A DNA stretch of 64,000 bases from assembly GCA_021413845.1 (NCBI GenBank), contig JAIOPP010000056.1, positions 1-64,000 of the forward strand, given 5' to 3'. The position numbers and the translations under genes were made by a program. The notes under the pieces were generated by a model. The model had not been told where the DNA came from and made no database searches. It saw only the letters and a program-made list of their open reading frames with translations. This DNA comes from Planctomycetia bacterium (GTDB lineage: Bacteria > Planctomycetota > Planctomycetia > Pirellulales > PNKZ01). Of the stretch, positions 13,885-31,400 are shown one piece after another (position 1 is the stretch's first letter; each line of letters opens with the position of its first letter).

Positions 13885-14799
13885 ATGAAAGCCTCGCTCG
13901 AAGTCCTTATCGCCGATCGAGTCGTGCGGCGCATTGAATTGCGCGAAGGACAGGTCGTGCAATTCGGCCGAACCGATTGGGCCGATTTCAGCTTCCGCGA
14001 CGATGCCGCGATGGCCGACGTCCACTTCGCGATCGAATGCCGCCACGACGCCTGCCGCCTCAAAGCCCTCGTCACCGATCGCGACACGCTCGTGAACGGC
14101 GAAAAGGTCGAAGAGGCCGTGCTCCACACCGCCGACCGCATCAGCGCCGGTCTGTCGACTTTCCTCGTCACGATCGAAGGCGAAGCCGCTCCGCTCGGCG
14201 CGATCGTCGCCGGTGCGGCCATCGCCGCCACGCCGCCGGCAACCGACTTCGTGAACCTTTGCAGATACCTCGGGCTCGACGAAGCGCTGCCGTTTGCCGA
14301 GACCAAGCCGCATCAATCGCGCGACGAGTTGCTGCAAGCTTTGATCGCCGCGCAACAATATTCCGCCGCCGCGCGGCTCTATGCCCACTGGTTGCCGAAG
14401 CCCGCGGCCGTCTGGTGGGGCTGCCTCTGTGTGCGCGAATCGTGCGGCAACGCGCTCCCGAAGCCACAAGAGTCGGCCTGGGAAGCGGCTAAGAATTGGG
14501 TCGGCAAGCAAGACGAGGCGACCCGTCGCGAAGCCGAAAATGCCCTGGAAATGGCCGCCTATTCGGGCCCCGGCGGCATGCTGGCATCGGCAGCATTCGC
14601 CACCGGCGGCAGTATCGCTCCGGCAGGCTTGGAAGATCTCCCGCCCGACCCGCGCATGACGGGCCATGCCGTGCGCACGGCCTTGATCTTCGCTTCGGTC
14701 TTCGGCGACGCACGGCAAGCGCCGGCCCGTTGGCGCTGGTTTTTGGTATTGGCAGCGGAAGTGACCGCCGGGAAAATCACGCTGCCCGAAGCCCGCTGA
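13885..14799 (+). CDS. FHA-domain protein with DUF6931-like C-terminus, T6SS-linked
   Basis: The protein is 304 aa. Residues about 1-95 read as a forkhead-associated fold: VVQFGRTDWADFSF has the conserved GR, followed by an AMADVHFAIE strand (an S-x-x-H site with Ser replaced) and LVNGEKV. FHA domains bind phosphothreonine. Residues about 115-300 are an Ala-rich helical domain with WWGCLCVRES, AWEAAKNWV and AFATGGSIAP, similar to the DUF6931 proteins found next to T6SS spike genes; that match is from memory. It starts 8 bp after vgrG. Function is unproven; a phospho-controlled T6SS adaptor is a reasonable inference because kinases are encoded nearby. Confidence 0.75.
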   Translation: MKASLEVLIADRVVRRIELREGQVVQFGRTDWADFSFRDDAAMADVHFAIECRHDACRLKALVTDRDTLVNGEKVEEAVLHTADRISAGLSTFLVTIEGEAAPLGAIVAGAAIAATPPATDFVNLCRYLGLDEALPFAETKPHQSRDELLQALIAAQQYSAAARLYAHWLPKPAAVWWGCLCVRESCGNALPKPQESAWEAAKNWVGKQDEATRREAENALEMAAYSGPGGMLASAAFATGGSIAPAGLEDLPPDPRMTGHAVRTALIFASVFGDARQAPARWRWFLVLAAEVTAGKITLPEAR

Positions 14800-14891: not shown

Positions 14892-15350
14892 ATGGCCCGT
14901 GCCCTGAAGAAGCCCGCCGAACTGCGCGACTCCTGGCGGCCGCGCCTCGGAACCGACCGGCAAGGACGCTGGCTCCGCTTCGGCCGCCGGCTCGGCATGA
15001 CGTTTCTCGTCGGGCTCCTGTTCGCCGCGATGTACTACGCCCTCTTCAGCCCCTTCTGGCATCCGCACACGCACCTGATCACTGCCGGCGTCGAACGCTT
15101 TCGCGACACAGCCTCGCCGGCGCTCGAGTTCGTGCGCGAAGATGCCGCGGCGATGCAGGTCCCGCTCGATGCGGTTTTGTTTCACTCTTCGGCCGACGAT
15201 CGAACTCCGCGCCACCTCGAAACGGCCGACGACTTCGCCGGCCTCGCCGCGCGGCTGAATGCCGACGACGTCCGGCCCGAAGACGTTCTCGTACTCTACC
15301 TGCAAACGCACGGCGTCGGCCTCGACGGTGATCGGCGTGGTCGTGAATGA
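14892..15350 (+). pseudogene. 5' fragment of a caspase-like membrane protein gene, broken by a frame change
   Basis: This is the N-terminal part (152 aa) of the gene continued by the next entry. The start is the ATG at 14892 (MARALKKPAELRDSWRPR). A single TM helix lies at about 36-56. Residues about 85-141 form the first half of a peptidase C14/caspase-like fold ending in VLVLYLQTHGV, where His140 would be the catalytic His. After GLDG the frame ends in RRGRE. The related gene at 22245 has about 60 residues from its catalytic His to the point where similarity resumes; here only about 7 remain. About 50 codons, including the expected catalytic Cys segment, are lost and the frame moves by one base. 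Confidence 0.75.
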
Positions 15351-18300
15351 GTTTCCCCGTTTACTGCGCGACGAGGTCGAGCGCACCGACGACCCGAACC
15401 TGTGGGTCCTAAGCGATTGCGCTCCGCTCGAGCGCGGGCACCTTGCCACCCTGGTGCGGCAAACGATCTTCGGCCATTTTTCGTCGCGCGCTCTGCAAGG
15501 CGAAGCCGACTCGAACGCCGACCGCTTGCTCGACATCGGCGAACTGTTTCGCTTCGTGCAAGCCAACGTCGCCCACTGGGTCGCCGATGCGACGGCCGGC
15601 GTGGCACGCCAAACGCCGATGTTGCTGTGCGGCCGAGCGTTGAAGGAGCCGCCGAGTTCGTACCCGGTGCTGCTCGCAGTCGCGGCGTTGCAACAGAACG
15701 AGCCGAAGGATGCGGCGAAAGATGCGGCAAAGCCGGCCGAGCCGGTAGCCGCCGCGCCGGCTCCTGCGCCCCCGATTGCCGAGCCGACGGCCACCGCAAC
15801 ACCCGCGCCTACGATAGCCTCTCCCACGGCGGCAGCCACGGCCGACGCGAAGCCCGCTGCGCCGGCCGCACCCCTCGACCCCAACGCGCTGCCGACGATC
15901 AAACTCCCCGACCCCGCGCTCACGGCCGCGCCGCTGCCGCCGGCGATCAAGCCCCTCACGGTCGAGATGCCGAAGCAGGAAATGAAGAGCGAGGCTTTGC
16001 TCGCGCTCGGCCGGCAGATGCAAGTCGCGATCGAAGATCGCAGCCGCGGGGCTGCGGTTCCCGTCGACTTCGGGCCGCAATGGTGGCGCGCCGCGCGCTC
16101 GGAGTTCCGCAGCCTCGAACGAATGCAAGCCGACCCGAGCGTCGATGCGCGCGTGAAGGAAATCTCGATCCGCCGCGCGGTCACGTCGCTCGGCGAGTTC
16201 GCCAACGGCCGACCGCTGACGACCGGCGATGAAGCCCTGCGCAAGCTCGAAGCGCTCCGCGGTTCGGTCGCGCCGCCGACGGAAGAGTTGCGAACCTGGG
16301 CTCTGGTCGAACGAGCCGTTTCCGAAGGGGCCGCGCAACCGTCGGCCGACTTGAAAGAGTTGATCACCGCGCTCGACGCAGCCTTTGCCGCCGACACCTC
16401 GACCGCATTCGACGCGCTGGCCGCAAAGGCTTGGTCGCCGGTCGCCGAGCGCTATGAAGAATTCCATTTCGCCCGACGACTGGGACGCGCCGCAGATGTC
16501 TCTTGGACGACACGCCGCCTCGCTTGGCATACCTGCCGCGAAGGGGAACGGGCCGGGGCCGAAGACCAACCGCGCACGTCGCTCCAAAATGCCGATCGAC
16601 TCCGCGAAACGGCCCGGCGCGAAATGTTCGACCAAGTCGACGACGATTGGATTCGCCAAGCCGATCGCGCTTTTCGCGACGCTTTAGAACTCTATCGCCT
16701 GGCGCAACGGGCGGCCGACGAACGCCGCCGCTCGTCGCAAGTGCGCAACGACGCGCTCTACCGCGCCTCCGAGTACGTTCGCTGGGTTCACGACGGCGAG
16801 GGAGACACGATCTGCGCGCCGCGCCACGACGACGTCCTTCGCTTTCTCCTGTTACTGGCCGAATTCACCGAGCTCTTGGAACAGGGGCCCGAGGCTTCGT
16901 ACGACGATCTCCTGCCGCGCCGCGAACGGCTGGAAGCTCTCGTCGCGGCGATCGAAGCCCCGCTCGGTCCGCCGGCGGTCGACGCTCTCGTCCGGCCGGG
17001 CTCGCCCGTTCCTGCACTGCGGCATCGGATCGAAGTGTTGCTCAGGTCGGGCCTAGCGAGCATCACTGCCCGCACACGATTGGAAGAAGCGCTCCTGCGA
17101 CTCGATGCCGACGCGCCGAAGATCGCGGCGGTGCGCGAGCTGCCGACGACGTTCGACTTCGCCCGCAACCCGACGCCGCACGACTGGCGCTCGGCGCTGC
17201 GCTTTTGCGTTCTGGTCACGAGGCTCTCGCGGCTGACGCTCATTGACGGCAAATCCACCGCGAAGCTGTTCGAAGTGGTGAGTGAAAAGAAGTGGGAGCT
17301 GGCTTGGAAGCGTGCGCCGCAAGAGGGAGACCAACATGCGAAGAAAGAGCCGACGCACGAAACCGACGAATCGAGCCTCGAACATTTCGCGCAAAGCAAC
17401 TCGCCCGACGGTTACGACCTGCGCGCGATCGAGCGCGAAGTGCGCCGGCGTTATGCGGAGCTGACGCATACGATTGAGCAAGCCGCGCAACTTGCCGGCG
17501 ACCTGACCGACCCGCTCGAGCGCACCCGTCGCCTCACGACTCTTCGTGCCGCAAGACGCGCAAGCTACTTGCTCGATCCGCGCGACGTCGCCAGGCTCGC
17601 CGGAGCAGATGTCGGCCGCATGCTCCAGCGTGCCGAATGGTACGATCTGCTCGTCGAAGCTCGCGATCGGGCCTTGCTGGCTCGGCAAGATTCCTCGAAC
17701 ATCGAAGCGGCCTATCTCGCGGCCGTGGCCGAAGACGATCGCGAGCTCGCGCAAAAGATCCCTTCGCAACCGCCGATCGCCCCGCGGCCGCTCGATCCGG
17801 TCAGGCTGCTCGGCCCGGCGGAGCTCTCGCTCACCGACGAACCGACGCGCGATCTGAAAGCGACGGTCGAATACATCGGCCCGACCGCCGGACCGGTGTG
17901 GTTGATCGTGCATTACGACCCGGACCTGTTCGAAGTGAAGCTCCCTCCCGGCTCGGGCATCTACGAGCAGCACGAGCTCAAGCTTGAGATCGCAAAGATC
18001 GCGGCCGACGCGGAAGCGAAGCGGATGAAGTTGGCGAGCGCCGAGAAGATCGACGAACCGGCTTTCATAGAGGCGAACAAGAAGGCGCTCGCCGCGCGCA
18101 ACGCCGGCCGCTTCCCGCTCGAGCCCGCCGGCGCCGGCCTCCCCGCTACTTGGTCGCTGAGCCCGGGCGAGCGGAAGGAGGTCGTCGTTCAATTGCGCCG
18201 CAAAGGAACCGCGGCGCGGCGGACGAAAGTCGTCGTCAACGCCGTCACGCGCGAATCGTACGTCCGCGTCGAAACGGCCACGACGCTGCCTTCGCTCGAA

Positions 18301-20130
18301 ACGATCTCTTTCGCACCGGTCGGCGGCAGCGGCAGTTGGTCGCGCGCGGCCGACGGCGTCGTGCTACACCCGCTGCCGAATCGCACGACCGACTATGAGT
18401 TCCAAGTCGCGAACCTCGGCACGGCCGACAAGGTCGTCGATGTCGAGTTCATCGCACCCGAAAAACGCCTCGCGACGACCCTCCCGAACTCCGTCCGGAC
18501 GCTCGCGATCAGCGAAGTTCTCGCCATGGTCGGGCCCGCACAAACGCTCGTGAAGATCGACGATCTCAAACTTCCCGGCGGGGCCAAGCCGGTCTCGCTG
18601 GCCGCTCCGAAACCGAAAGAAAAGGGAGAGCCGCCGCCGAAGGAAGCAGATAAGAACAATGCCGAGAGCACGGTCGGCACCGGCCCGAAAACCGGCGACG
18701 AGCCGCCGCCGATTCCCGTGCGCCAAGGGATACTGATGATCTTGCGCGAGCGCGAGACCGGCAACACGCTCTTGCGCCGCATCGACTTCCGCCCGCAGCG
18801 CCCGCGCCGCTATATGGATGCCGTCGTCGGCTACAACCTCGGGCTCGAGCGGATCGAGGTTCGGGTCGTGGCGTCCGATCGTGCCGCCGTTCCGCCGGCA
18901 GGGGTCAAAGTGAAGTTGAACTTCCCCGAGCCCCTTGCGCGCGGCACCGAAGCGCAGCTCGAAGGGATCGTCAACGCGCCCGACTACACCGCTCTGCTCT
19001 ACGTGCAAGCCCCGCCGAGCGACAGCCGGGTGCAAACCGTGTATCTCAACGTCGACGACTATCCTCGCGCCTTTACCTACCACGTTCCTTGCGGCCCTCC
19101 GGCAACGAATATTCCCGAAGTCGCCGACGCGCTCGAGCTTCGCATCCTCGCGCCGGCGAACGGTTCGATGTTCAAGGCACCGGCCTCGGTCATTCCGGTC
19201 GAGCTTCAGGTCGACGCGCCGATCGGCTCGTTCGACAACGACCGCGACGTGCTCGAAGTCGGCATCGACCGCGACCGCGACCGCGACTTCCGCGACGAAG
19301 CGCCGCTAGTCCTCTATGCCGATCGCCAAGCCGAAGTGTTTCTCAATCGCTGGGGAACCAACGGCATCGTCGTCATCAAGACCGACGTCCACGACTTCAA
19401 GCTTGAAGTGCCGGGAGGCGCGTTGCAAAACTTGCGCGCCAACCTCGTCGCGAAAGCGCAAGTCGGGTCGCGGATCGCCTACAGCGCTCCGCTCGAAATC
19501 GGCCTCGACGGCGCAGCCCCGCAAATCAGCCGACTCGAACTCAAGCCGGGCCGCACCGTGGCCGTCGGCGGCGAGCTTGTCGTCGACGCCTGGTCGACCG
19601 ATGCCGAAATGAGCGGCACCGGAAAAATCGAGATCGGCTTCGACGTCGACGGCAGCGGCAAGTTCTCCGAGAAGGAACCACCGCTCCCCGCACTCTCCGT
19701 CGCACCGACCCGTTGGTCGCTCAAGCTGCCGACCGATAAGCTCGTGCCCGGCAAAGCGACGGTGCTCGTTCGCGCGACCGATCGGGTCGGCAACGTCGGC
19801 GAATATAGCAAGCTCGCGCTCACGGTCGTCTCGGCCGCCGATGCCGCTGCGCTGGCCCGCGCGGCCGGTTCGCGCCTGACCGGCACCGTCCGCTATGGTA
19901 CGGATCCGTTGGAGAAAGCGGTCGTCAGCCTGCTGGGAGCGGAAGATAAGCAGATCGCGACGGCGGAGAGCGACGCCGCCGGCTTCTTCGCGCTGGAAGC
20001 AGTGCCGGCGGGAACCTATAAGCTCACCGCTCGCGGACTTGCGAAGAACAAGCCCCGCAAGTACGAGCAGCCGCTTACGGTCCCTGCTCCGCCGGCGAAG
20101 GTTCCGCGGCTCGATCTGCAGGTGGAATAA
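15259..20130 (+). CDS. Giant caspase-like surface protein, C-terminal part (frameshifted from 14892)
   Basis: The first ~23 residues of this open frame (to 15328) are out-of-frame reading of the previous entry; real similarity starts at GVVVNEFPRLLRDEVERTDD, matching the post-catalytic part of the caspase domain at 22245. An Ala/Pro-rich linker (about residues 145-240) is followed by a long helical body of about 650 residues, then an extracellular-type beta region: PAGVKVKLNFPEPLARGTE, a region rich in D-R-D residues (GIDRDRDRDFRDEAP), Ig-like segments and a C-terminal carboxypeptidase-regulatory-like domain (GTVRYGTDPLEKAVVSLLG, AAGFFALEAVPAGTYKLTA). Likely membrane-anchored and facing out of the cytoplasm. 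An intrinsic terminator follows at 20201. Confidence 0.75.
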   Translation: MPTTSGPKTFSYSTCKRTASASTVIGVVVNEFPRLLRDEVERTDDPNLWVLSDCAPLERGHLATLVRQTIFGHFSSRALQGEADSNADRLLDIGELFRFVQANVAHWVADATAGVARQTPMLLCGRALKEPPSSYPVLLAVAALQQNEPKDAAKDAAKPAEPVAAAPAPAPPIAEPTATATPAPTIASPTAAATADAKPAAPAAPLDPNALPTIKLPDPALTAAPLPPAIKPLTVEMPKQEMKSEALLALGRQMQVAIEDRSRGAAVPVDFGPQWWRAARSEFRSLERMQADPSVDARVKEISIRRAVTSLGEFANGRPLTTGDEALRKLEALRGSVAPPTEELRTWALVERAVSEGAAQPSADLKELITALDAAFAADTSTAFDALAAKAWSPVAERYEEFHFARRLGRAADVSWTTRRLAWHTCREGERAGAEDQPRTSLQNADRLRETARREMFDQVDDDWIRQADRAFRDALELYRLAQRAADERRRSSQVRNDALYRASEYVRWVHDGEGDTICAPRHDDVLRFLLLLAEFTELLEQGPEASYDDLLPRRERLEALVAAIEAPLGPPAVDALVRPGSPVPALRHRIEVLLRSGLASITARTRLEEALLRLDADAPKIAAVRELPTTFDFARNPTPHDWRSALRFCVLVTRLSRLTLIDGKSTAKLFEVVSEKKWELAWKRAPQEGDQHAKKEPTHETDESSLEHFAQSNSPDGYDLRAIEREVRRRYAELTHTIEQAAQLAGDLTDPLERTRRLTTLRAARRASYLLDPRDVARLAGADVGRMLQRAEWYDLLVEARDRALLARQDSSNIEAAYLAAVAEDDRELAQKIPSQPPIAPRPLDPVRLLGPAELSLTDEPTRDLKATVEYIGPTAGPVWLIVHYDPDLFEVKLPPGSGIYEQHELKLEIAKIAADAEAKRMKLASAEKIDEPAFIEANKKALAARNAGRFPLEPAGAGLPATWSLSPGERKEVVVQLRRKGTAARRTKVVVNAVTRESYVRVETATTLPSLETISFAPVGGSGSWSRAADGVVLHPLPNRTTDYEFQVANLGTADKVVDVEFIAPEKRLATTLPNSVRTLAISEVLAMVGPAQTLVKIDDLKLPGGAKPVSLAAPKPKEKGEPPPKEADKNNAESTVGTGPKTGDEPPPIPVRQGILMILRERETGNTLLRRIDFRPQRPRRYMDAVVGYNLGLERIEVRVVASDRAAVPPAGVKVKLNFPEPLARGTEAQLEGIVNAPDYTALLYVQAPPSDSRVQTVYLNVDDYPRAFTYHVPCGPPATNIPEVADALELRILAPANGSMFKAPASVIPVELQVDAPIGSFDNDRDVLEVGIDRDRDRDFRDEAPLVLYADRQAEVFLNRWGTNGIVVIKTDVHDFKLEVPGGALQNLRANLVAKAQVGSRIAYSAPLEIGLDGAAPQISRLELKPGRTVAVGGELVVDAWSTDAEMSGTGKIEIGFDVDGSGKFSEKEPPLPALSVAPTRWSLKLPTDKLVPGKATVLVRATDRVGNVGEYSKLALTVVSAADAAALARAAGSRLTGTVRYGTDPLEKAVVSLLGAEDKQIATAESDAAGFFALEAVPAGTYKLTARGLAKNKPRKYEQPLTVPAPPAKVPRLDLQVE

Positions 20131-20200
20131 CCCGACGATTCGTTAAAATCTCCCCAAACCCTCAAGACGACACGCGACGATTGCCGATTTTGCAGACGAG

Positions 20201-20219
20201 AGACCGTCCGGTCTTTTTT
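20201..20219 (+). terminator. Rho-independent terminator after the giant caspase-like gene
   Basis: A five-base stem AGACC/GGTCT with loop GTCC runs directly into six T residues, 70 bp after the stop at 20130. The stem is short and the lipoprotein gene starts only 30 bp later, so read-through or attenuation is likely. Confidence 0.5.
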
Positions 20220-20248
20220 GTTTGCGTGGCTTTTCGGAATCGCGGTCG

Positions 20249-22153
20249 ATGCCTTCCTGGCGTGTCACAATCACGTTGCTCTTGGTGACGATGCAATGCA
20301 TCGGTTGCGCCGGCGCAGGCAAACCGCCGACCCCTCCGGCCCTGCCCGCTGCGCCTAGCTCGGCGACGGCCGGCGCCACGACGATCGTGGCGATCGCGCC
20401 TCCTCCGGCACCCGCCGGTCCTTCTTGCACGCTCGCCGGTTTCCTCGGGCTCGACAAGCTCGGAGCCGGCATCGGCGGCCTTTTCCAGCGGGCATTTAGC
20501 CGCATCAAGAACGCGCTCGGTCTTACCGGTAAGTTTCCGGGCCTGCAAGCGCAGCCGCCGGTGTTGCCGATCACCGATCCCGCGAACCTCGGACCCAATG
20601 CGCCGCCGGCGGTCAAAGCGGCAGCCGCAGCGAAGATGGAAGAAGATCAGGCGGGGCAAAAGATCCAAGCGCTCCGCTACCTCGCGACCCTCGGTTGCGG
20701 CGGCTGCTATCCGGCGGTCGAAGATGCGATGCTCGCCGGCCTCGACGACTGCACGGAAGCCGTGCGCTATGAAGCGGCCCTTGCGCTGCGCGGCAAAGAC
20801 GGCCAAACGCGCTGCTGCAACTATTGCAAATGCGGCGACTGTTGCAGCGACAAGATCCGCAAGAAGCTCGACGAAATCGCGAACAAGATGGACGACAAGA
20901 ACTGCTATAAGGAACCATCGGAACGTGTGCGCCGCGTGGCCCGCGAAGCCCTCGCGGCTTGCGGCGGTTTCTCGAGTTCGCAATCGCCGACTCCGACGGA
21001 AGGCCCGACGGAAGCGCCGCTCCCCGATCCCGCCGTGTCGGGCCCTGCCGCAGGGGTTGTGCCCGAGGCACCGGCTCCGGCCGCGATCGTGCCCGGCTCT
21101 TCGGCCGGCGCCGCTGTGCCGAATCCGTTCTCCGGCGTGCAGCTCGCGTCGTTCGAGCAACCGACCGCCGAACCGCAGACGGCCGGCAACCCCGTCCTCG
21201 CGACCGTCGACGGCGAGCCGATTCACGAAAGCAAAGTCTTCCGTTCACTCGACGTCGAGCTGCAACGGGCGAAAGCGCAAGGCACGACCGTCGGGCCCGA
21301 GCGGTTTCAAGCCTTGTTGATCGAGCAGATCCAGCGCTCGGTCGATTGCCGCCTGTTGTTGCGAGAAGCGCATCGCGAGCAAGCTCGTTCGACCGGCTAT
21401 ATGTCGGCGCGTCCGCTGGATGCCGCCGAGATCGACGCTTGGCTCGCGCAAGCGCTGAAAGTCGACTCGCGGATCTCGCTGCTCGAGCTCAACGCCCGCT
21501 ATCAAGCCGAGGCCGCGCGCTACCGCACGGCTCCGCAAGTGAAATGGGAACAAGTCTCCGTACCGGTCGCGCGGCTGAAGTCGCGTGACGAAGCGCGACT
21601 CCTCATTACCTATCTGCACAATCGGGCTCAAGGCGTGCGCTGCGAAGCCCCCGATGTGAACCTGCACGCCGTCGATACGCGCATCATCGATTGGACCCCG
21701 CGCGATCGGATCGGGTCGAAGTTGCTCGCGCAAACCTTGTCGCGGCTTCCGGCCGGAGCGACGAGCCCGATCTTGGAAGAGAACGGTGCGTTTCAAATCG
21801 TGCGCGTGCTGGAACATCGGGCCGGCGGAGTCGTGCCGTTCGAGCAAGCGGTCGACGCGATGCGCAAGGAAATTCTGGCCGAACGTCGCACGCAAGCGGA
21901 GCGGCAATTGCTCGAAAAGCTCAGGGCCGAAGCGAAGATCTGGACCGCCTTCGACCCGGCAGTGAAGACGGCCGACTACTCCGTCGACACGGCGAGCTTC
22001 TCCCCTTCTCCGTTCGGAGCCGAGGCTGCCGGGGTCGTGCCGGTCGGGCATTCTTCGACCGCCCCGCGCTTTCAGCCGGGAGCGCCGCGCGCCGCGAGCC
22101 CGTCCGAAATTCCCCCGGGAACTTACATGCGTCCCCCTTTCCCCGCTCCCTAA
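20249..22153 (+). CDS. Cys-rich HEAT-repeat lipoprotein with SurA/parvulin-like C-terminal half
   Basis: I chose the ATG at 20249 (MPSWRVTITLLLVTMQCIGC), giving 634 aa with a lipoprotein-type signal and candidate lipidated Cys20; an in-frame TTG at 20222 is possible. Residues about 135-240 are HEAT-like helices (YPAVEDAMLAGLDDCTEAVR, RVRRVAREALAACGG) carrying eleven Cys in 90 residues, including RCCNYCKCGDCC. This module recurs in planctomycetes. Residues about 310-620 look like a SurA/PpiC chaperone: NPVLATVDGEPIHESKVFRS, a helical body, then a degenerate parvulin-like region (DWTPRDRIGSKLLAQTLSRL). Likely an extracytoplasmic folding factor, lying between the two giant caspase-like genes. 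Confidence 0.75.
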   Translation: MPSWRVTITLLLVTMQCIGCAGAGKPPTPPALPAAPSSATAGATTIVAIAPPPAPAGPSCTLAGFLGLDKLGAGIGGLFQRAFSRIKNALGLTGKFPGLQAQPPVLPITDPANLGPNAPPAVKAAAAAKMEEDQAGQKIQALRYLATLGCGGCYPAVEDAMLAGLDDCTEAVRYEAALALRGKDGQTRCCNYCKCGDCCSDKIRKKLDEIANKMDDKNCYKEPSERVRRVAREALAACGGFSSSQSPTPTEGPTEAPLPDPAVSGPAAGVVPEAPAPAAIVPGSSAGAAVPNPFSGVQLASFEQPTAEPQTAGNPVLATVDGEPIHESKVFRSLDVELQRAKAQGTTVGPERFQALLIEQIQRSVDCRLLLREAHREQARSTGYMSARPLDAAEIDAWLAQALKVDSRISLLELNARYQAEAARYRTAPQVKWEQVSVPVARLKSRDEARLLITYLHNRAQGVRCEAPDVNLHAVDTRIIDWTPRDRIGSKLLAQTLSRLPAGATSPILEENGAFQIVRVLEHRAGGVVPFEQAVDAMRKEILAERRTQAERQLLEKLRAEAKIWTAFDPAVKTADYSVDTASFSPSPFGAEAAGVVPVGHSSTAPRFQPGAPRAASPSEIPPGTYMRPPFPAP

Positions 22154-22191
22154 CTCGTAAACCTAGGGTGCTTCGATCGGCGCGATCGAGT

Positions 22192-22197
22192 TATAAT
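22192..22197 (+). promoter_or_regulatory. Candidate -10 element for the caspase/vWA gene
   Basis: A perfect TATAAT lies in the short gap before the gene at 22245; the -35 region is poor. The predicted start near 22204 would leave a leader of about 40 nt. Confidence 0.35.
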
Positions 22198-22244
22198 GCG
22201 TTGCCGCAGCGGCGGCCCGCATAGTTCAGGATGCAAGGTTCGCT

Positions 22245-25200
22245 ATGGCAAGCCACTCTTCACGAGAACCGACGCCGCCGCCGAGCTGGAGCGATCGGCG
22301 CGATGAGTACGTCGACGATCGCAAGCACCGTTGGCAAGGGGCCGGCGATGCGGCCCGAGCCACGCGCGTCGCCGCGGTCAAGCGCAGCTCCGGGCGGCGC
22401 GTTTTCGTCATGCTCTTGTTGCTGCTGGCGCTGTTCGGCCTGTTCGTCTACGTGCTGTTGTTCTCGCCTGCCAAGACGCCGCTCATCGTGATCTCGGCGA
22501 CCGACTATGCTTGGCCCGTCCCGCCGAACGCCTGGGTTCGCGAAGACATCGCCGGTCTCGAAGAGCTCGACGGCCGCACCCTGCACGTAGTCGATACCTC
22601 GACCGCTTGGCGCTCGAAGTCGACGGGGCTCGCCGAGCTCGATCGGCGCTTGCGCGAGCTCGGCCACGCGCGCGGCAACGACGGATCGATCTTGTTCTAC
22701 GTCGCGCTGCACGGCTTGGTCGACGAAAAGGGAATGCCCTGCCTGCTGCTTCCCGGCGCGTCTCCTTTGAACTCCGCACAATGGCTTCCCTGCGATGAAT
22801 TGCTCCGGCATCTCGGCTCGGAGCTGCCGGCCGAAGTCAACAAAGTGCTCATCCTCGATTGCACGCGGATTCGCACGAACTGGAATCTCGGACTCGTTCG
22901 CAATACGTTCGTCGAACGGCTCGAAGAACTCGTCGGGCGCGGCGACGTGCCGAACCTGCAAGTCCTCACGTCGTCGGGTCTCGATGAAACCTCGTGGGCC
23001 TCGGCCGATTTGCGCGGCTCGGCCTTCGGGCGCGCCGTGCGCCTCGGGCTCGCCGGAGCGGCCGATCGAAGCGAACGAGGCGAAAAAATCGGCAACCGCA
23101 ACGGCCGGGTTTCGATCGCGGAATTGCATCGCTACGTCGGGTCGTATGTCGAGCGCTGGGCCAAGAAGAATCGCGGGGTCGAGCAAACGCCGCGCTTGCT
23201 GTTGAACGAAAAGACGCCGCTCACCGACTTTCGTCTAACCTGGTCGCTCGATCGCTCCGGGTTGAAACGGATGCTCGAAAGTGAAGAGACCGCCGGACGC
23301 GCCGCAGACACGATCCCGCTCGACGACGTCGCCGAACTCTGGCGCAAGCTTGATGCGCTTCGTGCGGCCCGCGCTTATCAGGCCGATCCGCTCGCATGGC
23401 GCGAGCTCGAACAACGCCTGTTGCAGCTCGAACAACTGGCCTCGGCGGGCGAAGCCTATCGCGAGCCGGCCGAGCGGTTGAACGCCGAACTCCGCGAACG
23501 ACTCACGATCTCCGTGGCTCGCGCAACGCAAACCGCGGCCGGCGAAAACGGGATGGCGAAGGCCGCGCTGCTCGCGCCGACCGACAACGACGTTGCGGCG
23601 AACTTCAAGCTCCACTCGCTCCCGCTTTGCGAATACTTCGGCACGCTGGACGCCGGCACGATCGCTTCGACGCGCGGACGCCTCGACCTCGCGACCGCGG
23701 CGAACGATCCCGAAAGCTTGGAAGCGATATGGTTGAAATCAACCCGACCCGAGCAAGTGCGCGAGCTGGCTGAAGTGCAATTCATCAAGCTCGCGCGGCG
23801 CTACGAAGCCTCGACTCTGTGGAAGCAAGGAGATTCGGTTCGCAAAGGTTTGCAGCTCTACGAGCTCGCCGAGCGCACCGCGATCTTCGGCGATGCCCGC
23901 GCCCACTACTGGCTCCGCCCGACGCTCGAAGCGGCCGACGCGGCACGTCGCGCGGCGGAAGATCGGTACTATCTCGGTCCGCGCAAGGCCGCCGAAACGG
24001 CCCCGTGGGACGCGCCGCTGGCGCTCTACGAAGCGATCGGCGCTGCAAATTCGGGCCTCCGGCCTCGCATCGAAACGGCCCTGCTCGCGTACGATCGGAC
24101 TTGCTCCGCGGCGCCGTATCTGGCCGAGTGGTATTCGCGCCCCGGGTTGAAGCTCACGAAGCGCATCGAGGTCGAGAGTGAGAAAAGCAACGACGGAACG
24201 AAGGTCAACAAACCTGCGACTCCCTCACCCGACGATCCCGTCAACGGGCGTCTTGCGCCGCTGTTTCGCAATGCGAAGAAGCTCGGCGAGTTGCTCGACG
24301 AACGGAGCGCGACGCCGTCGACCGATGCTCCGCCGTTCTTGGAATCGGCCCGCATCGTGGGAGAAGAACTCGAGGCGCTCGACCGCGACTTTCGCAACAC
24401 GGTCGAAGAGCGCCTGAACGAGTCGGGCTCCGACGGCGCAACGCTCCGCGAACTGCAAGCCGCGCTCGACGTTCCGCTGTTGCCGGCTGATAAACGAGCG
24501 GCCGTAATGAAGAAGGCGAACGAGCTGGCCGTGCGCCTGCATGCCGCAGGGCTCGAAGATGCCGCACCCGCCGCAAAACCTGCCGACAAGCCGGCGAGCG
24601 ATCTGGTCGCGATCGGTTTCGCGGAGCGGATCTCCGGTTGGCCGACCCATCCTTTGGCGATGATCCTCGACTTCGACGAACCGTCGAAGACACCGGAAGC
24701 GGCTGGAACGAAACCGGCCGATCCGCCCGCCGGCGACGTGAACGAAAAACATGCGGCGGCCGAACGTGTGGAACGGCTCGGCACGCTCGCCCGCGAACGG
24801 TTGCGACTGCTGCCGACGTTGCCGCTGGCCGACGATGCCGCCGTGGGAGATGCACCGCGTGTCGCATACGCGCGTACGGCCCGAGCGCTACGGAGCGCCG
24901 CACCGATTTGGTTCACAATGCCGACGGTCGATCCGATCGCGCGGCTGCGGCGCTTCGACATGCAGCAGCTCCTGCTGTGGGATTGTCGCCGTACGCTCGA
25001 CGACTTCTGGGGCTCCGGCGGCGACAAGCCCGGCGCGATCGAGCGCTCGAAGCCGTTCTTCGATACGGCGGCGAGCGACCATCTCGCCGCCGCGCGCGAG
25101 TTGTTGCCGCCGACGTCGGCCGTCGATAAGGAGTTCGACGCTTTGCGTCGTCTCTTGAACTTGCGCCGGCTCGCGAGTCGTCGCGGAGCGGTCGCCGCCG

Positions 25201-27305
25201 TCGAGACCGGGCTGCCCGACGGCGCCGGCGATTCGATCACGCTCACGGTCGACATCGAACCGGGAGACGATTCCGCTCAGGCAGCCGTCCAGGGGGCGTT
25301 CCCCGCCGGCGAAGGAGCCGCCTTCGCCCGCAATGCCGAGACGATCTTGCCGCTCGTTCGGGAACCATGGAAGACGCCGCTCGCCGGCAAAGGGGCCGAG
25401 TTACGGCTGGCCGGGTCGGTGCCCGAGACGTTCGGTTCGGCCTTCCAAGCGGTCGCGATGTTTCGCGGCAACGAATACACGGTGCCGTTCATGCGGCCGG
25501 GGCTCGGGGGCGTGGTCGTCGACTTCGTCCCGACGCTGCCCGACACGGCGCAAGTCACGCTCTTCGGCGACCGACCGCAGCAATCGTCGGTCGTTTTCAT
25601 TCTCGACTGTTCGGCGAGCATGGCGACCGACATGCCGGTCGAATTGATCGACGCGCAGAAGTTGCCGCGCCTCGAGATCGCCAAGAGCGTGCTGGAATCG
25701 CTCTTGGAACAGCTCGCGATCCGCGGCGATACGCGCGTCGGTGTCCGCTTCTTCGGGCATCGGGCCGGCTGGGCCAAAGAACAACTCTCGAAGATGCTCA
25801 CGCAAAACGACTACGCGGGCTCGATCCCCGACGACGTGAGCCCGAGCTCCGACGTGGAGTTGGTGTTGCCGCTCGGTCGGTTCTCGTCGGTCGAGGCGGG
25901 CTTGGTGACGTCGCGTTTGAAGAGCGTGAAGCCGTGGGGACAGTCGCCGCTGTTTCTTTCGCTGCAAGATGCGCTGCGCGATTTCGACGCCGACAAGGGA
26001 GATACGGACAAGAGCATCGTCGTGATCACCGATGGCGCAAACTACCAATTCACTCCGGCCGGCGGCGGCGTGGCGGCACCGGCGCATCGCACGCTCAACG
26101 ATGTCGCAACGAGCTGGCAAGGGAAGAACGTGCCGATCTATATTCTCGGCTTCGGCACGGCTCAGGCCGGCGATGCCGCGGCCGAGCGCGAGTTCACCGA
26201 GCTGGCCCGACGAACGCAAGGCCGGTACTTCCCGATCGGCAACGGTCGCGATCTGTTGACGACGCTGCGCGAGCGGCTCGGCCTCGGCAGTTACGAAGTC
26301 GACCCGTCGGGCGCGGCCGCGCTCGGCAACCAAGCGGCGACGAAGCTCAACAGCCCGGTCACGGTCTCCGGCCTGCGCAAACAACCGGCCGACTACACGG
26401 TCCGCTTCGAAGCGACCTCGCGGCAAGTCTTGCTCGAAGGGGGGGAGGCGTTGCAGCTCTATGCCTCGCGCGGCGGCGAGATCTCGGCCCGAGCCTACGA
26501 CCAAGGGGTCCCGGTCGAAGACCTGTTGGTGAACGACAACGAGCGGCTACGTCTGACGGTGCGCGCTCATCGACCGCGGCGCATCGCGGCGGGGGTCGAG
26601 TTTCCGATCTCGGTGCAAGACGCCGATTCGTACTTCACGCGCCGGCCGACCGAGATGTGGATCGAGATCACGCCGACGACGAAGAACGGTGCGAAGAACG
26701 AAACCGAACCGCTGCCGACCTATATTTTCTACGATCGCAACTACACGCTCGGCACGCCGGTGCCCGTCGAGACCTGGACGGCCGATCGTTGGCCGGCCGG
26801 CAGCGCGCAGGCGAAGGTGCAAGTCTGGTGCAAGTATTCGCCGACCGAGCCGGGCGGAGCGACGCCGCTGCGCGAAATCGTCGAAGACCGCGCGCGGTTT
26901 CTCACCGGCACCCCGATCGCGCTCGTCGACGGCGCGACGTTCCGCGTGCAGCTTCCCGAGCGGATCGACGGCGACACGCCTTACGAGATCAAGATCATCG
27001 AAGAGCATGGTCCGGCCTCGCCGGGAGTCGGCGCGCTCAAGGTCCTCTTGGAGACCGAGAAGTCGCTGCTCCCGAAACGGATCGTGCGTCGGTTCGACGC
27101 GAAGCATCGCGTGGCGATCCATTCCTACTGGTTCGACCCGGACACGGCGCGGAAGGTGCTCGACTCCGCCGCCTCGCGCATCACGTTCACGACGCGCAAC
27201 GCCACGCGCGACGGAGCCTGGCGCATCGAAAACCGATCGCTGACGGTCGACATCTTCGGCGCCGGCGAGACCCTGCCGCTCGACGCCGCGACCGGCGTGC
27301 GCTAA
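22245..27305 (+). CDS. Giant membrane-anchored caspase-like protein with vWA domain
   Basis: The protein is 1686 aa. A basic cytoplasmic tail is followed by one TM helix at about 53-73. Residues about 78-310 form a C14/caspase-like domain; His156 (FYVALHGLVDEKG) and Cys206 (VLILDCTRIR) fit the catalytic dyad. A long helical region with internal Pro/Ala linkers follows. A von Willebrand A domain occupies about 1115-1310, with the MIDAS motif DCSAS near 1121, a later VVITDGANY strand, and RTQGRYFPIGNG. The C-terminal ~350 residues are beta-rich. It is a paralogue in layout of the broken gene at 14892. The stop is 16 bp from the stop of the convergent kinase gene. Confidence 0.85.
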   Translation: MASHSSREPTPPPSWSDRRDEYVDDRKHRWQGAGDAARATRVAAVKRSSGRRVFVMLLLLLALFGLFVYVLLFSPAKTPLIVISATDYAWPVPPNAWVREDIAGLEELDGRTLHVVDTSTAWRSKSTGLAELDRRLRELGHARGNDGSILFYVALHGLVDEKGMPCLLLPGASPLNSAQWLPCDELLRHLGSELPAEVNKVLILDCTRIRTNWNLGLVRNTFVERLEELVGRGDVPNLQVLTSSGLDETSWASADLRGSAFGRAVRLGLAGAADRSERGEKIGNRNGRVSIAELHRYVGSYVERWAKKNRGVEQTPRLLLNEKTPLTDFRLTWSLDRSGLKRMLESEETAGRAADTIPLDDVAELWRKLDALRAARAYQADPLAWRELEQRLLQLEQLASAGEAYREPAERLNAELRERLTISVARATQTAAGENGMAKAALLAPTDNDVAANFKLHSLPLCEYFGTLDAGTIASTRGRLDLATAANDPESLEAIWLKSTRPEQVRELAEVQFIKLARRYEASTLWKQGDSVRKGLQLYELAERTAIFGDARAHYWLRPTLEAADAARRAAEDRYYLGPRKAAETAPWDAPLALYEAIGAANSGLRPRIETALLAYDRTCSAAPYLAEWYSRPGLKLTKRIEVESEKSNDGTKVNKPATPSPDDPVNGRLAPLFRNAKKLGELLDERSATPSTDAPPFLESARIVGEELEALDRDFRNTVEERLNESGSDGATLRELQAALDVPLLPADKRAAVMKKANELAVRLHAAGLEDAAPAAKPADKPASDLVAIGFAERISGWPTHPLAMILDFDEPSKTPEAAGTKPADPPAGDVNEKHAAAERVERLGTLARERLRLLPTLPLADDAAVGDAPRVAYARTARALRSAAPIWFTMPTVDPIARLRRFDMQQLLLWDCRRTLDDFWGSGGDKPGAIERSKPFFDTAASDHLAAARELLPPTSAVDKEFDALRRLLNLRRLASRRGAVAAVETGLPDGAGDSITLTVDIEPGDDSAQAAVQGAFPAGEGAAFARNAETILPLVREPWKTPLAGKGAELRLAGSVPETFGSAFQAVAMFRGNEYTVPFMRPGLGGVVVDFVPTLPDTAQVTLFGDRPQQSSVVFILDCSASMATDMPVELIDAQKLPRLEIAKSVLESLLEQLAIRGDTRVGVRFFGHRAGWAKEQLSKMLTQNDYAGSIPDDVSPSSDVELVLPLGRFSSVEAGLVTSRLKSVKPWGQSPLFLSLQDALRDFDADKGDTDKSIVVITDGANYQFTPAGGGVAAPAHRTLNDVATSWQGKNVPIYILGFGTAQAGDAAAEREFTELARRTQGRYFPIGNGRDLLTTLRERLGLGSYEVDPSGAAALGNQAATKLNSPVTVSGLRKQPADYTVRFEATSRQVLLEGGEALQLYASRGGEISARAYDQGVPVEDLLVNDNERLRLTVRAHRPRRIAAGVEFPISVQDADSYFTRRPTEMWIEITPTTKNGAKNETEPLPTYIFYDRNYTLGTPVPVETWTADRWPAGSAQAKVQVWCKYSPTEPGGATPLREIVEDRARFLTGTPIALVDGATFRVQLPERIDGDTPYEIKIIEEHGPASPGVGALKVLLETEKSLLPKRIVRRFDAKHRVAIHSYWFDPDTARKVLDSAASRITFTTRNATRDGAWRIENRSLTVDIFGAGETLPLDAATGVR

Positions 27306-27321: not shown

Positions 27322-28422
27322 CTACGAGCCGCCCTTCAAGGCGACCGCGATCGCGACGACCAGGGCCAGCAGCACGCACACGCCGATCAGCACCGCCCGG
27401 CTCGGGCCGCGGCGGACAGGGCCCGACGCGGAGGAGTCGTCGTCGCCGTTCCAGCCGCGCATGATCGTCGAGAGGCGGACGGCGATCGTCGTCGGGGCGC
27501 CGGCCTCGGGATTCTTCGCCGGATCGGACTTCGCCTCGGGCTGCGGAGTCGATTCGCCAGCTTGCCCCGGCGGCATCGCCGACAGCGCGGCGGCGAACTC
27601 CGCGGCCGATTGAAAACGAAGCTCGGGATCTTTCTCCAAGGCCCTCAACGTGGCCGCGCCGATCGGCAGCCGCGCGACGTCGCTCGGCAGCGGCGGCACC
27701 GCTTCCGTGTTGTGCTTCACCAACACTTGCACCGGATTCGGGTCGTCGAACGGGGGCTTTCCCGCGAGCATTTCGTAGAGCACGACCCCCAGCGAATAAA
27801 TGTCCGACGTCGGCGCGGGGAAATCGCCGCGGCATTGCTCGGGGCTCATATAGGTCGGCGTGCCGAGCACGTTGCCGTGTACCGTGAGGCGGGCCGATTC
27901 GGAGAGGCCGCCGCCGTCGGCACGTCCGGCGACTTTCGCGATGCCGAAGTCGAGCACTTTGACGTCGAGCGGCGCGCCGTTGCCGCCGCACAGAAAAATA
28001 TTATGCGGCTTGAGATCGCGATGAACGACGCCGAGCTCGTGCGCCTCACCGACCGCCTCTAAGACCTGGCTCGCGATCTCCACGGCCGCGGCCGGAGCGA
28101 CGCGTCCTTCGCGCGCCATGCGGAGCGTAAGCTCCTCCCCTGCGAGCAGCTCCATCACGACGTACGTTCGCCCTTCGCCGGTTTCCGCCACGTCGAGCAC
28201 GCGGATGCAATGCGTGCTCCGCATCTCGTTGGCGAGCTTCGCCTCGCGCCGCAGGCGATGGCGGAGCGTCGGGTCGGCATCGGCTTCCGGCAGCAGCACC
28301 TTCAGAGCGACGCTCCGCTCCGTCTCGCAATCGAGCACGCGATAGACGATGCCGAACGAGCCGCGACCGATCTCCTGATCGATGCGGTATCGGCCGGCGA
28401 ACAAGGTTCCGAGTGCGAGCAT
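27322..28422 (-). CDS. TM-anchored Ser/Thr protein kinase (PknB type)
   Basis: The protein is 366 aa. The kinase domain spans about 12-280: glycine loop GRGSFGIVYR at 19-28, catalytic Lys41 (VALKV), HRDLKPHN with Asp136, DFG at 158-160, activation segment ending GTPTYMSPEQ. All key residues are present, so it should be active. A Pro/Glu-rich linker leads to one TM helix at about 343-362 (AVLIGVCVLLALVVAIAVAL) with almost nothing outside, so no sensor domain is attached. It follows the WD40 kinase by 30 bp, last of a three-gene operon. Confidence 0.93.
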   Translation of the reverse strand: MLALGTLFAGRYRIDQEIGRGSFGIVYRVLDCETERSVALKVLLPEADADPTLRHRLRREAKLANEMRSTHCIRVLDVAETGEGRTYVVMELLAGEELTLRMAREGRVAPAAAVEIASQVLEAVGEAHELGVVHRDLKPHNIFLCGGNGAPLDVKVLDFGIAKVAGRADGGGLSESARLTVHGNVLGTPTYMSPEQCRGDFPAPTSDIYSLGVVLYEMLAGKPPFDDPNPVQVLVKHNTEAVPPLPSDVARLPIGAATLRALEKDPELRFQSAAEFAAALSAMPPGQAGESTPQPEAKSDPAKNPEAGAPTTIAVRLSTIMRGWNGDDDSSASGPVRRGPSRAVLIGVCVLLALVVAIAVALKGGS

Positions 28423-28452: not shown

Positions 28453-31400
28453 TTACGGCCGGCCGCTAGTTTGCGGCGTCTTCGCGTCCGGTGCAAGCGG
28501 TGATTTGTCGTTCTTGCCCCCTCCCCAATCGACGGCCGGCCAAATAATCGCCCTGCCGTCTCTGCCGGTCGTGAGCGCGTTCAGTCCGTCGTGCGAGAAG
28601 GTCGTGCTGGAGACCGCTTGCTTATGTTCCTTCAACGTTAGGATTTCCTTGCCGGTGGTCGTGTCCCAGAGCTTGGCGAGGTTATCTTGCGAACCGGTAA
28701 GCACTCGTTCGCCGTCGACGGTAAACGCGACCGATGTCACGCCGGCCGTGTGCCCTCGAAGCACATATAAGTTTTCGCCGGTTTCGGCATTCCACACGAT
28801 CGCCGTAGTGTCTTCGCTGCCGGTGGCGATGAACCTGCCGTCTTTCGATACGGCCACGGCGCGAACCGCCATCGTGTGCCCTTCCAGCGGAGGCAACTGT
28901 CGGCCGTCGGCGACGACCCAGCGGTGCGCGGTAATCTCTTCGCCGCCGGTAATGATGCGCTTGCCGTCGGCGGCGAACTCGGCGACGTACATCGCCCCTA
29001 CCTGAGCGAACGACTTCCCTTCGAGCTCTCCGGTCTCGGCGTTCCAGAGGCGGGCCTGGCCGTCTTCCGAAGCGGTGAGCACTTGCTTGCCGTCGGACGA
29101 GAAGCGAACGGAATTGACGTTGCCCGTGCCGGCCGCCGCCAGACGCCGGATGGCGAGGCCGGTGACGGAATCCCAAATCTTCGCCGATTGATCCCAGCTG
29201 CCGGTCACGACGCGCGCGCCGTCTTTATCGGGAGAGAATCCCACCGAAGCGACCGCTCCTTGCGGGCTGAAGCTTTTCAACTCCGCGGCGGTCGCGGCAT
29301 CCCATAGCCTGGCACCGTCGCCGCCGACGGTGAGCAGGCTTTTGTCGTCTTCGGAAAACATCGCGCACCAAACCAAAAAGTCGCGCGCCTCGAGATCCAA
29401 AAAGGGAGCGGCTTGGGCAAGCCGTTCGTTGCCCGCGGCCGGCGAAGGAATCTCGTCGCCGGTTTTGAGATCGAACATGCGGACCGTGCGGCGCACGGCA
29501 TCCGTCGAAACGATCCGACGTTCGTCGTGCGACAAAGCGACCAACTGCGGCGACTTCTCCGTGCGCAACTCGTGCAAGACTCGGGCCGACTGGACGTCCC
29601 ACACGCGGACCTTGCCGTCGTTGCAACCGGTGACGGCCGTTCGACCGTCGGCGGTTGCGGCGAGCGACGACACGGCCTGCGGATGCTTCAAGATCCGATC
29701 GCGCAGCGGCCGGCCCGTAACCAAGTCCCACTGCTCGACGGAATTGTCGGCCGAAGAAGTGAGCAGTAGCTTGCCGTCGTCCGAGAAGACGGCGCCGGTG
29801 ATTCGATCGGTATGCGAGGAGAGTTCGCGCAGCAGGCTGCCGTCGGCCCGGCTCCACAGGCAACATCGCCCGCCGGAGTCGCCGGTGAAAAGTTGCAAGT
29901 CGTCGGCCGAGAAGGCGGTCCACACGATTTCATCGCCGCGGTTGGCGAGTCGGAACAAATTTTCCCCCGTCTCGGCGTACCACAACGTGGCCCCATCCTG
30001 CTCGTTGCCGGTCAGCACGACCGAGCCGTCGCGCGAGGCCGAGAGGGCTCCGGCTCGGCCGGCGGGTTTCAAGCGCAAAATCTCGACGCCGCGCGCGACG
30101 TCCCAAATGCGCGCCGTGTTGTCGATGCCCGCCGTCACGACGCGCCCCTGCGGGTGCTCATCGTCCATGCCCGGCAGGTTCGGAATAAACGCGGCCTGCG
30201 AGACCAAGAACGAATGCCCTTCGGAGATTTGCATCGACGACCCATCGGCGACGTTCCAAACGCGGGCCGTGTGGTCGCGGCCGCCGGTGACGATGCGCTG
30301 ATCGTCGGGCGAGAACTCGGCATGCAGCACGGCGTCGGAATGCTTATGCAAGACGAGCTTGCCGAGCACTTTTTCTTCGGCGTACTTATCGAAGTCCCAG
30401 AGGATCGCGCTCCGATCGTGGCTCCCCGAGAGAAGCCGCTTGCCGTCGGCGGATAAGACGCACGATCGGATCCAACCGGCATGGCCGCGGAGTGTCTTTT
30501 CGAGCCGACGATTCTTAGCGTCCCACACTTTGACTGTGTTATCGTTCCCGGCGCTGACGATGCGCAAACCATCGGCGGAGAAGCCGACCGAGCGGACGGC
30601 GGCATCGTGCCCCTGGAGCGCGTCGAACTTCACTGGAATTTGCGGCTTTTTGTCGATCAGTTTCTCGAAGTCGAAAGCGCGAATATCGGCCGGGTCCCAA
30701 AGCATCACGCGCTTGTCGTCTCCGGCCGTAGCGACATACTTGCCGTCGGGCGAAAAGGCCGCCGCGTAGACCGGGCCTTCGTGGCCCCTGAACGGCTCGC
30801 TCGGTTTCTCCGTTTCGATATCCCAAACGAACGCGTTGCCGTCTTGGCCGGCGGTGACGATGCGCGTTTCGGGAACATCGGGACCGAGAGGCGGGGCAAA
30901 CGCCGCGGACCAGACCCACCAGTTATGCCCTTGAAAGATATGGAGCTGTTTCTTGGTTTCGATTTCCCACAGCCGTGCGGTTTTGTCGTAGGAACAGGTG
31001 AGCAAGCGCAGCCCGTCGCGCGAGAAAGCGACGCCGAGCACGCCGTCTTCGTGGCCCGAGAACGTCCGCTTCAACTCGCCGGTAGCGGCATCGCGAATCT
31101 GCACATAAGCGTCGGGATCGCTACCGCCGATCGCGATGTCTTTTCCGTTCGGAGAAAAAGCGACGGCATGCACGTATTTGGAACCGTAACGGATGACGGT
31201 CGGCGGCGCCGAGCCTTCGACCGACCAGATGCGCACGCTGTTGTCCCAACTCCCGGCGGCGAAACGTTTGCCGTCGGGCGAGAACGCGACGCAATCGATC
31301 GGGCCGACGGTGCGGAACGTCTGTTTGTTTTGCCCGCAGAGGTACATCAACCGACCCCATTCCCACCGGCGTAGGCTCGCCTCGCATTGATCGAGCAAGG

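What the first reader, a model, noticed from the sequence alone, without database searches (positions are those of the whole stretch)
14892..27305. Pair of giant caspase-like membrane proteins flanking a Cys-rich chaperone-type lipoprotein
Seen: two plus-strand genes (14892 and 22245) encode >1,600-residue proteins, each with a short basic tail, one TM helix, a C14/caspase-like domain (THG and HGLV; LILDC in the second), a long helical body and a beta-rich end. One carries a vWA domain with DCSAS MIDAS, the other a carboxypeptidase-regulatory-like domain. A HEAT/parvulin lipoprotein lies between. Known: bacterial caspase homologues often act in defence or stress suicide, and vWA proteins bind partners through metal. 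Inference: this could be a surface proteolysis or contact-triggered system, placed directly after a T6SS spike module.
Basis: partly seen in the sequence, partly recalled or inferred. Interest (0 to 1): 0.78.

Follow-up and report, generated by a model that had tools for sequence, protein, structure and literature searches.

The report
Giant pseudo-caspases of planctomycete secretion system
Two giant membrane proteins with a caspase-shaped but probably non-cutting domain appear to be structural parts of a bacterial toxin-injecting machine (type VI secretion) in planctomycetes, where they probably replace a missing piece of the machine's envelope channel.

Summary
The paired giants and the Cys-rich exported protein between them are real, but the 14892 gene is broken inside its caspase-like domain (frameshift, about 48 residues missing against two intact relatives). 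A caspase fold is predicted for the 22245 protein (Z 19.9), but the caspase Cys position holds Cys in only 7 of 99 long frames, against 8 of 8 small control caspases. Proteolysis or suicide is therefore not supported. Context is the stronger result. In 40 order-level genomes, giants and the T6SS sheath gene tssC occur in the same 16 (plus one weak giant hit). In 323 phylum genomes, all 23 in-class tssC+ genomes carry a giant frame and a TssM cut off just after its last membrane helix, with no TssJ detected; the other 37 tssC+ genomes carry long TssM and no listed giant frame. Giants often sit beside short TssM. Best reading: the giants, perhaps with the exported protein, form the periplasmic half of a new kind of T6SS membrane complex, replacing the TssM arm and TssJ. 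Position, co-occurrence and truncation are shown; assembly and function are inferred. The literature searches made here listed no description of this.

The parts
2..1114 (-). TssH/ClpV N-terminal part (Clp_N + AAA), cut by the window edge
   Evidence: Pfam Clp_N 7e-5 and AAA 7e-10; similar to ~900-aa proteins in relatives' T6SS loci
1274..3307 (-). TssG (real gene is the C-terminal part of this frame)
   Evidence: Pfam T6SS_TssG 6e-105 at residues 355-657
2269..4539 (-). TssF
   Evidence: Pfam T6SS_TssF 5e-227
6345..6941 (-). Hcp
   Evidence: Pfam T6SS_HCP 4e-16
7110..8600 (-). TssC (VipB) sheath
   Evidence: Pfam VipB 2e-134
9280..10509 (-). TssA (ImpA_N)
   Evidence: Pfam ImpA_N 4e-32
11831..13876 (+). 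VgrG spike
   Evidence: Pfam Phage_GPD 3e-103, Phage_base_V, Gp5_trimer_C
13885..14799 (+). FHA + DUF6931 protein
   Evidence: Pfam FHA 2e-5 and DUF6931 3e-37
14892..15350 (+). Giant 1 (G1), N-terminal piece: basic tail, TM helix, first part of caspase-like domain; frame then stops
   Evidence: aligned with intact relatives
15340..20130 (+). Giant 1 (G1), remainder in another frame: end of caspase-like domain, helical body, Ig-like and carboxypeptidase-regulatory-like end
   Evidence: Pfam CarboxypepD_reg 1e-8, Big_13 0.013 below cut-off; profile homology to G2 over 678 columns, probability 99.9%
20222..22153 (+).
   Evidence: Pfam Rotamase_2 0.0017, below cut-off; homologues near the giants in 15 of 20 long loci
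22245..27305 (+). Giant 2 (G2), 1686 aa: N-tail, TM 53-71, caspase fold 73-336, helical body ~337-1000, vWA 1106-1346, beta-rich end
   Evidence: residue ranges converted from model numbering
27322..28422 (-). Ser/Thr protein kinase
   Evidence: Pfam Pkinase 3e-45
28453..33741 (-). Ser/Thr kinase fused to WD40 repeats (link to the T6SS not tested)
   Evidence: Pfam Pkinase 6e-37, WD40 5e-132

Best explanation
The two giants (G1, G2), probably with the parvulin-like exported protein, are core envelope parts of the T6SS in the class to which the window belongs (Planctomycetia, judging from named relatives). In these bacteria TssM stops just after its last membrane helix, so the machine keeps TssL and the cytoplasmic NTPase part of TssM but lacks the periplasmic TssM arm, and no TssJ is detected. 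Each giant puts a short basic tail into the cytoplasm, crosses the inner membrane once next to short TssM, and sends about 1,600 residues into the periplasm: a non-catalytic caspase fold used as a binding scaffold, a long helical body, then a vWA (G2) or Ig/carboxypeptidase-regulatory-like (G1) end. These ends would bridge to the cell wall or outer membrane, perhaps through the parvulin-like protein, giving the channel through which the tail tube passes. Shown: co-occurrence, gene adjacency, TssM truncation, predicted caspase and vWA folds, loss of the Cys position, one predicted TM. Inferred: topology, physical assembly with TssL/TssM, outer-membrane bridging, absence of protease activity.
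For: Order sample of 40 genomes: TssC in 16; TssL/DotU in the same 16 plus G024; TssM NTPase domain in the same 16 plus G024 and a sub-threshold hit in G017; G2 query in the same 16 plus G013, an 87-residue match with a stop in the frame. Fisher p = 2.7e-10 with G013 counted as positive; 4 families hold both T6SS+ and T6SS- genomes and still match. Phylum sample of 323: 60 TssC+. All 23 in-class ones have a caspase-like domain match in a frame of 1,450 aa or more and a TssM frame of 542-631 aa (G349 822 as an open frame, 626 from its first start). All 37 outside the class have TssM frames of 1133-1683 aa and no such giant frame among the listed rows. TssJ: 0 of 23 against 18 of 37. 30 of 30 distinct complete short TssM ORFs end 0-53 residues after the last TM, 28 of them within 29; 20 long TssMs (of 39 genomes) have 652-1099 residues after it (18, 2). 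Adjacency: TssK-TssL-TssM-G2 in L128; giant-TssM-giant in L132 and L136; VgrG-G1-parvulin-G2-TssK-TssL-TssM-TssA in L150. Of 20 loci of 20 kb or more: two giants 18, parvulin-like 15, core T6SS gene or VgrG 17, short TssM 9; of all 40 loci: 24, 22, 23, 13. 7 of 9 single-contig in-class TssC+ genomes show exactly two listed giant frames and one short TssM.
Against: No physical or genetic data. The short/long TssM contrast follows the class boundary, so it may be a single evolutionary event and its p-value overstates independence. hhalign finds no homology between the giants and the TssM periplasmic arm, so replacement rests on topology and distribution. TssJ detection is weak: 19 of 37 long-TssM TssC+ genomes also lack a hit. 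One search's match table was cut and scored at most 8 candidates per genome, so divergent giants outside the class could be missed. In G343 (in class) a TssL-short TssM-730-aa 'mini-giant' cassette occurs with no TssC detected. In the window's own genome TssKLM lie on another contig and G1 is broken. Three of 99 long frames keep both His and Cys, two of them family members. 3 of 20 long loci show no core T6SS gene within about 10 kb.
Confidence: 0.7

Rival explanations
1. The giants are T6SS-linked regulators or contact sensors (vWA/caspase scaffold, FHA and kinase nearby) that trigger firing, comparable in role to the TagQRST/PpkA/Fha pathway (TagQRST recalled, from no call), rather than part of the channel.
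For: An FHA + DUF6931 protein and Ser/Thr kinases flank the set. vWA MIDAS residues are conserved in unselected sequences. Fha and kinase act on TssL in Agrobacterium (PMC3953482, abstract).
Against: Giant frames are found in all 23 in-class TssC+ genomes sampled, which are also those whose TssM lacks its periplasmic arm. A regulator would not explain how these machines cross the periplasm. Size and the two-per-system copy number look structural.
Confidence: 0.17
2. Active caspase-type proteases for surface proteolysis, effector processing or suicide.
For: Caspase fold at Z 19.9; His156 kept in the window G2; NCBIfam caspase model at E 1.7e-8 (34 bits, below its cut-off of 140).
Against: Cys position is Cys in 7 of 99 long frames, while 8 of 8 small control frames keep it; His kept in 58 of 99. 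No Pfam C14 hit in the window giant; no PADLOC hit.
Confidence: 0.05
3. The giants are T6SS cargo or adhesins delivered with VgrG.
For: They lie next to vgrG in the window and several loci; vWA plus beta domains resemble pilus tip adhesins (PitA, SpaC, RrgA).
Against: Predicted single-pass membrane anchor; found in all 23 in-class TssC+ genomes sampled; several loci place them next to tssKLM rather than vgrG.
Confidence: 0.05

Closest known systems
T6SS membrane complex TssJ-TssL-TssM (Pseudomonadota T6SSi)
   Same: TssL and the cytoplasmic NTPase part of TssM are present, with TssK-TssL-TssM gene order.
   Different: TssM ends just after its last TM; no TssJ detected; two giant single-TM proteins and a parvulin-like protein accompany it.
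Bacteroidota T6SSiii membrane complex TssNQOPR
   Same: Works like it: single-TM periplasmic proteins, a vWA-bearing lipoprotein (TssR) and PKD-type folds (TssP) stand in for the canonical complex (PMC10781749, passages).
   Different: T6SSiii lacks TssJ, TssL and TssM orthologues; here TssL and a short TssM are kept and the added parts are pseudo-caspase giants. Homology to TssNQOPR was not tested.
Acinetobacter non-canonical membrane complex (TsmK)
   Same: A T6SS lacking TssJ that recruits lineage-specific envelope proteins (PMC10564176, abstract).
   Different: The abstract reports a new domain evolved in TssM and mentions no truncation; no caspase-like giants are mentioned there.
Raptor (mTORC1)
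   Same: A catalytically inactive caspase-like domain followed by a helical solenoid, used for substrate binding (PMC6325617, passages); Foldseek rank 3 for the G2 half-model, but as a loose match (rmsd 34 over 933 columns).
   Different: Eukaryotic, cytosolic, WD40 end; only an analogy of design.
Caspase / C14 peptidases
   Same: Fold (Z 18.6-19.9, rmsd 2.4-5.9 over 189-226 residues among the 50 rows listed).
   Different: Catalytic Cys position not kept in most giants.

Membership tests
Peptidase C14 (caspase) active enzyme | caspase fold | tested here: met
   G2 residues 73-336: VIA Z 19.9, rmsd 3.1, 218 aligned against procaspase-6 4n7j_A; model pLDDT mostly above 90 there
Peptidase C14 (caspase) active enzyme | His-Cys dyad | tested here: not met
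   Cys position is Thr207 in the window G2; Cys in 7 of 99 long frames (5 of the other 92 are gaps), both residues in 3 of 99 (one, L127, matches no GIANT profile); controls 8 of 8 Cys. The register is from a sequence profile, not from superposed coordinates
Peptidase C14 (caspase) active enzyme | Pfam PF00656 match | tested here: not met
   6 other proteins of this genome match, the window giant does not; no C14 at E up to 1
vWA domain protein | vWA fold and MIDAS residues | tested here: met
   VIA Z up to 22.2; D1121, S1123 and D1263 invariant and S1125 nearly so in 11 sequences not selected by that motif; D1263 in 38 of 38. Pfam VWA models score just below cut-off
TssM/IcmF family | IcmF NTPase or periplasmic domains in the giants | tested here: not met
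   No IcmF model in the Pfam scan; hhalign of giants against 20 TssM periplasmic parts: probability 0.0-0.1 (2 of the 20 rows were a wrong frame)
T6SS core component | co-inherited with tss core genes | tested here: met
   16 of 16 TssC+ order genomes and 23 of 23 in-class phylum genomes
T6SS core component | gene linkage to tss genes | tested here: met
   17 of 20 loci of 20 kb or more hold a core tss gene or vgrG within about 10 kb
T6SS core component | required for firing | not testable with these tools
   needs deletion mutants
T6SSiii membrane complex (TssNQOPR) | absence of TssL and TssM | tested here: not met
   TssL and short TssM present in all 16 TssC+ order genomes
T6SSiii membrane complex (TssNQOPR) | homologues of TssN/O/P/Q/R | not tested
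   sequences were not fetched
Anti-phage defence system with caspase effector | match to known defence models | tested here: not met
   PADLOC: 0 families at E up to 0.01 for 4 proteins

The most novel reading that the evidence does not exclude
Planctomycetia invented a further kind of T6SS envelope channel: the TssM arm was discarded after the last membrane helix and its job passed to a duplicated pair of membrane-anchored pseudo-caspases with vWA and Ig-type ends, so that a caspase fold became a structural or load-bearing part of an injection machine.
Probability: 0.55. Interest if true: 0.88.

Novelty: new variant of a known kind. Interest (0 to 1): 0.8.

Why it matters
T6SS membrane complexes are described in a TssJLM form and, for Bacteroidota, a TssNQOPR form (PMC10781749, passages). 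A planctomycete form with a truncated TssM and two pseudo-caspase giants would show that the envelope half of the machine is replaceable piece by piece. It would make the question of what crosses the periplasm directly testable by deletion, pull-down and cryo-tomography. It would also give a prokaryotic case of a caspase fold kept as a scaffold in a large machine, as Raptor keeps one in mTORC1.

Tried and rejected
Active protease: rejected because of the lost Cys position, with a positive control. Homology of the giants to the TssM periplasmic arm: hhalign gave nothing. PDB sequence search with the caspase-like domain: nothing significant. PADLOC: nothing. IcmF_C (PF06744) proved a poor marker of long TssM, hitting 9 of the 39 long-TssM genomes, so frame length was used instead. 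G351 (a 1574-aa caspase-bearing ORF, no TssC) was considered as an exception and set aside because no GIANT profile matches it. A separate survey of G1 across genomes was not obtained. Cytoplasmic-tail motif: W followed by R or K occurs before the TM in 37 of 53 giants of L143-L182 against about 18 expected from shuffled tails; the window G1 has it, the window G2 does not (W-S, W-Q), so it is a lead only. Literature: 8 searches gave listings of which I opened few papers; T6SS is noted in Rhodopirellula baltica (PMC2660368, passages; PMC5394234, passage) and in freshwater Planctomycetes (PMC6461901, passage), and Planctomycetota are named in PMC13373197 (one passage). PMC9515649 was opened for one passage, a reference-list line. 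No listing or passage seen described short TssM or these giants. bioRxiv and most subscription papers are not in that library.
Full report
What is in the window. The left part of the window is a T6SS cluster: ClpV/TssH N-part, TssG, TssF, Hcp, TssC and TssA on the minus strand, then VgrG and an FHA/DUF6931 protein on the plus strand. G2 is an intact 1686-aa frame. G1 is not: the 14892 frame stops at 15350, and the protein resumes in another frame, lacking about 48 residues that two intact relatives have between the HG motif and NEFPRLL. Complete G1 genes exist in many relatives (29 ORFs of 1463-1902 aa, duplicates not removed). A real lesion and an assembly error cannot be told apart here.

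Anatomy of G2. AlphaFold half-models have mean pLDDT 83.8 (residues 40-1000, pTM 0.85) and 83.5 (985-1686, pTM 0.69). Residues 73-336 take a caspase fold: VIA Z 19.9, rmsd 3.1 over 218 residues against procaspase-6. The best Foldseek hit is CED-3 at 3.6e-5; Raptor is third, as a loose match. Residues about 1106-1346 form a vWA domain, Z up to 22. A single TM helix lies near residues 53-71. G1 and G2 are paralogues over the caspase-like domain and the helical body (profile probability 99.9%, 678 columns); they differ at the end, vWA in G2 and Ig/carboxypeptidase-regulatory-like in G1.

Pseudo-caspase. Aligned to a profile of the domain, the 8 small control frames have D-x-C with Cys in 8 of 8. 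In 99 long frames the same position is Gly 35, Asn 15, Ala 11, Thr 10, Cys 7, a gap in 5 and other residues in 16; His is kept in 58 and both residues in 3. In the window G2 the motif is L-D-C-T-R, so Thr207 stands at the Cys position. One of the three frames with both residues is L127, which no GIANT profile matches. The register comes from sequence, not from superposed coordinates. An unusual use of the neighbouring Cys206 is not excluded, but that position is also variable (Cys in 25 of 99).

Co-occurrence. In the order-level sample of 40 genomes, TssC is in 16. The G2 query hits exactly these plus G013, where the match is 87 residues with a stop in the frame. Four families (f1, f2, f5, f7) contain both TssC+ and TssC- genomes and the giants follow TssC in each. 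In 323 phylum genomes, 60 carry TssC, 23 in the window's class and 37 outside. All 23 have a domain match in a frame of 1,450 aa or more. None of the 37 has such a frame among the rows listed; that table was cut at about E 5e-13 and at most 8 candidates per genome were scored, so very divergent giants could be missed. Frames of 1369-1576 aa with a domain match also occur in G099, G321 and G351, which have no TssC; the G351 protein matches no GIANT profile, the other two were not examined.

Truncated TssM. The TssM NTPase domain is found in all 60 TssC+ genomes. In-class frames are 542-631 aa (G349 822 as an open frame, 626 from its first start); outside the class they are 1133-1683 aa. 30 of 30 distinct complete short TssM ORFs end 0-53 residues after the last TM window. 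The 20 long TssMs fetched have 652-1099 residues beyond it (18, two after a wrong frame choice). Short TssM is homologous to the cytoplasmic part of long TssM (hhalign 99.0%, 211 columns). TssJ was detected in 0 of 23 in-class and 18 of 37 other TssC+ genomes. G024, in the same order, has a canonical 1357-aa TssM with an OmpA-type TssL, no giants and no detected TssC.

Gene order. Giants are often directly beside short TssM: TssK-TssL-TssM-G2 with G1 divergent (L128), VgrG-(weak FHA hit)-giant-TssM-G2-kinase (L132), giant-TssM-G2 (L136), long unmatched ORF-TssM-giant (L140), VgrG-G1-parvulin-G2-TssK-TssL-TssM-TssA on one strand (L150). The triad of G1, parvulin-like protein and G2 recurs in Rhodopirellula, Stieleria, Schlesneria and other planctomycetes (L144-L148, L150, L151, L153, L158-L160, L166, L168; in L148 and L158-L160 not all on one strand). 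Of 20 loci of 20 kb or more, 18 hold two giants, 15 a parvulin-like homologue, 17 a core tss gene or vgrG and 9 a short TssM; over all 40 loci, many of them short contigs, the counts are 24, 22, 23 and 13.

Mechanism. The simplest account is that these machines lost the periplasmic TssM arm and that the giants, perhaps with the parvulin-like protein, took over the trans-periplasmic part. The Bacteroidota precedent, where non-canonical periplasmic proteins including a vWA lipoprotein form the membrane complex (PMC10781749, passages), shows such replacement is possible. The caspase fold would be a scaffold, as in Raptor (PMC6325617, passages). The vWA MIDAS, kept across the family, suggests a metal-dependent contact. 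FHA and kinase neighbours fit the known phospho-control of TssL (PMC3953482, abstract). All steps from assembly onwards are inference.

Limits. No experiment; the class boundary confounds the short-TssM association; G1 was not surveyed on its own; TssJ is hard to detect; G343 keeps TssL, short TssM and a 730-aa giant-like protein without detected TssC. The loci were selected by the pattern DCSxSM, so conservation of those letters there is by construction.

Noticed in passing
L101:14778-16796 (own genome, contig C122): A 672-aa protein joins VipA (TssB) and VipB (TssC) sheath domains in one chain; related second sheath proteins occur in several relatives.
   Followed up: partly
L124:8312-13234 (G343): A TssL, short TssM and 730-aa 'mini-giant' (one TM, weak caspase-like start, no Pfam hit) cassette in a genome without detected TssC.
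   Followed up: partly
Giants in L143-L182, residues before the TM: W followed by R or K occurs in 37 of 53 cytoplasmic tails against about 18 expected from shuffled tails, a candidate docking motif; absent in the window G2.
   Followed up: partly
L095, L107, L129, L162: These relatives carry two adjacent TssC-type sheath genes in one T6SS cluster.
   Followed up: no
window 33738-40895 (-): A 2385-aa cadherin/Big-domain protein beside the kinase-WD40 gene.
   Followed up: no
window 42688-50138: HlyD-type genes, a weak M50-type match and an OEP (TolC-like) gene that look like a type I-like export unit.
   Followed up: no
L141 (G024): Canonical TssM (1357 aa) and OmpA-type TssL with two DUF6708 proteins in a genome with no TssC detected.
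   Followed up: partly
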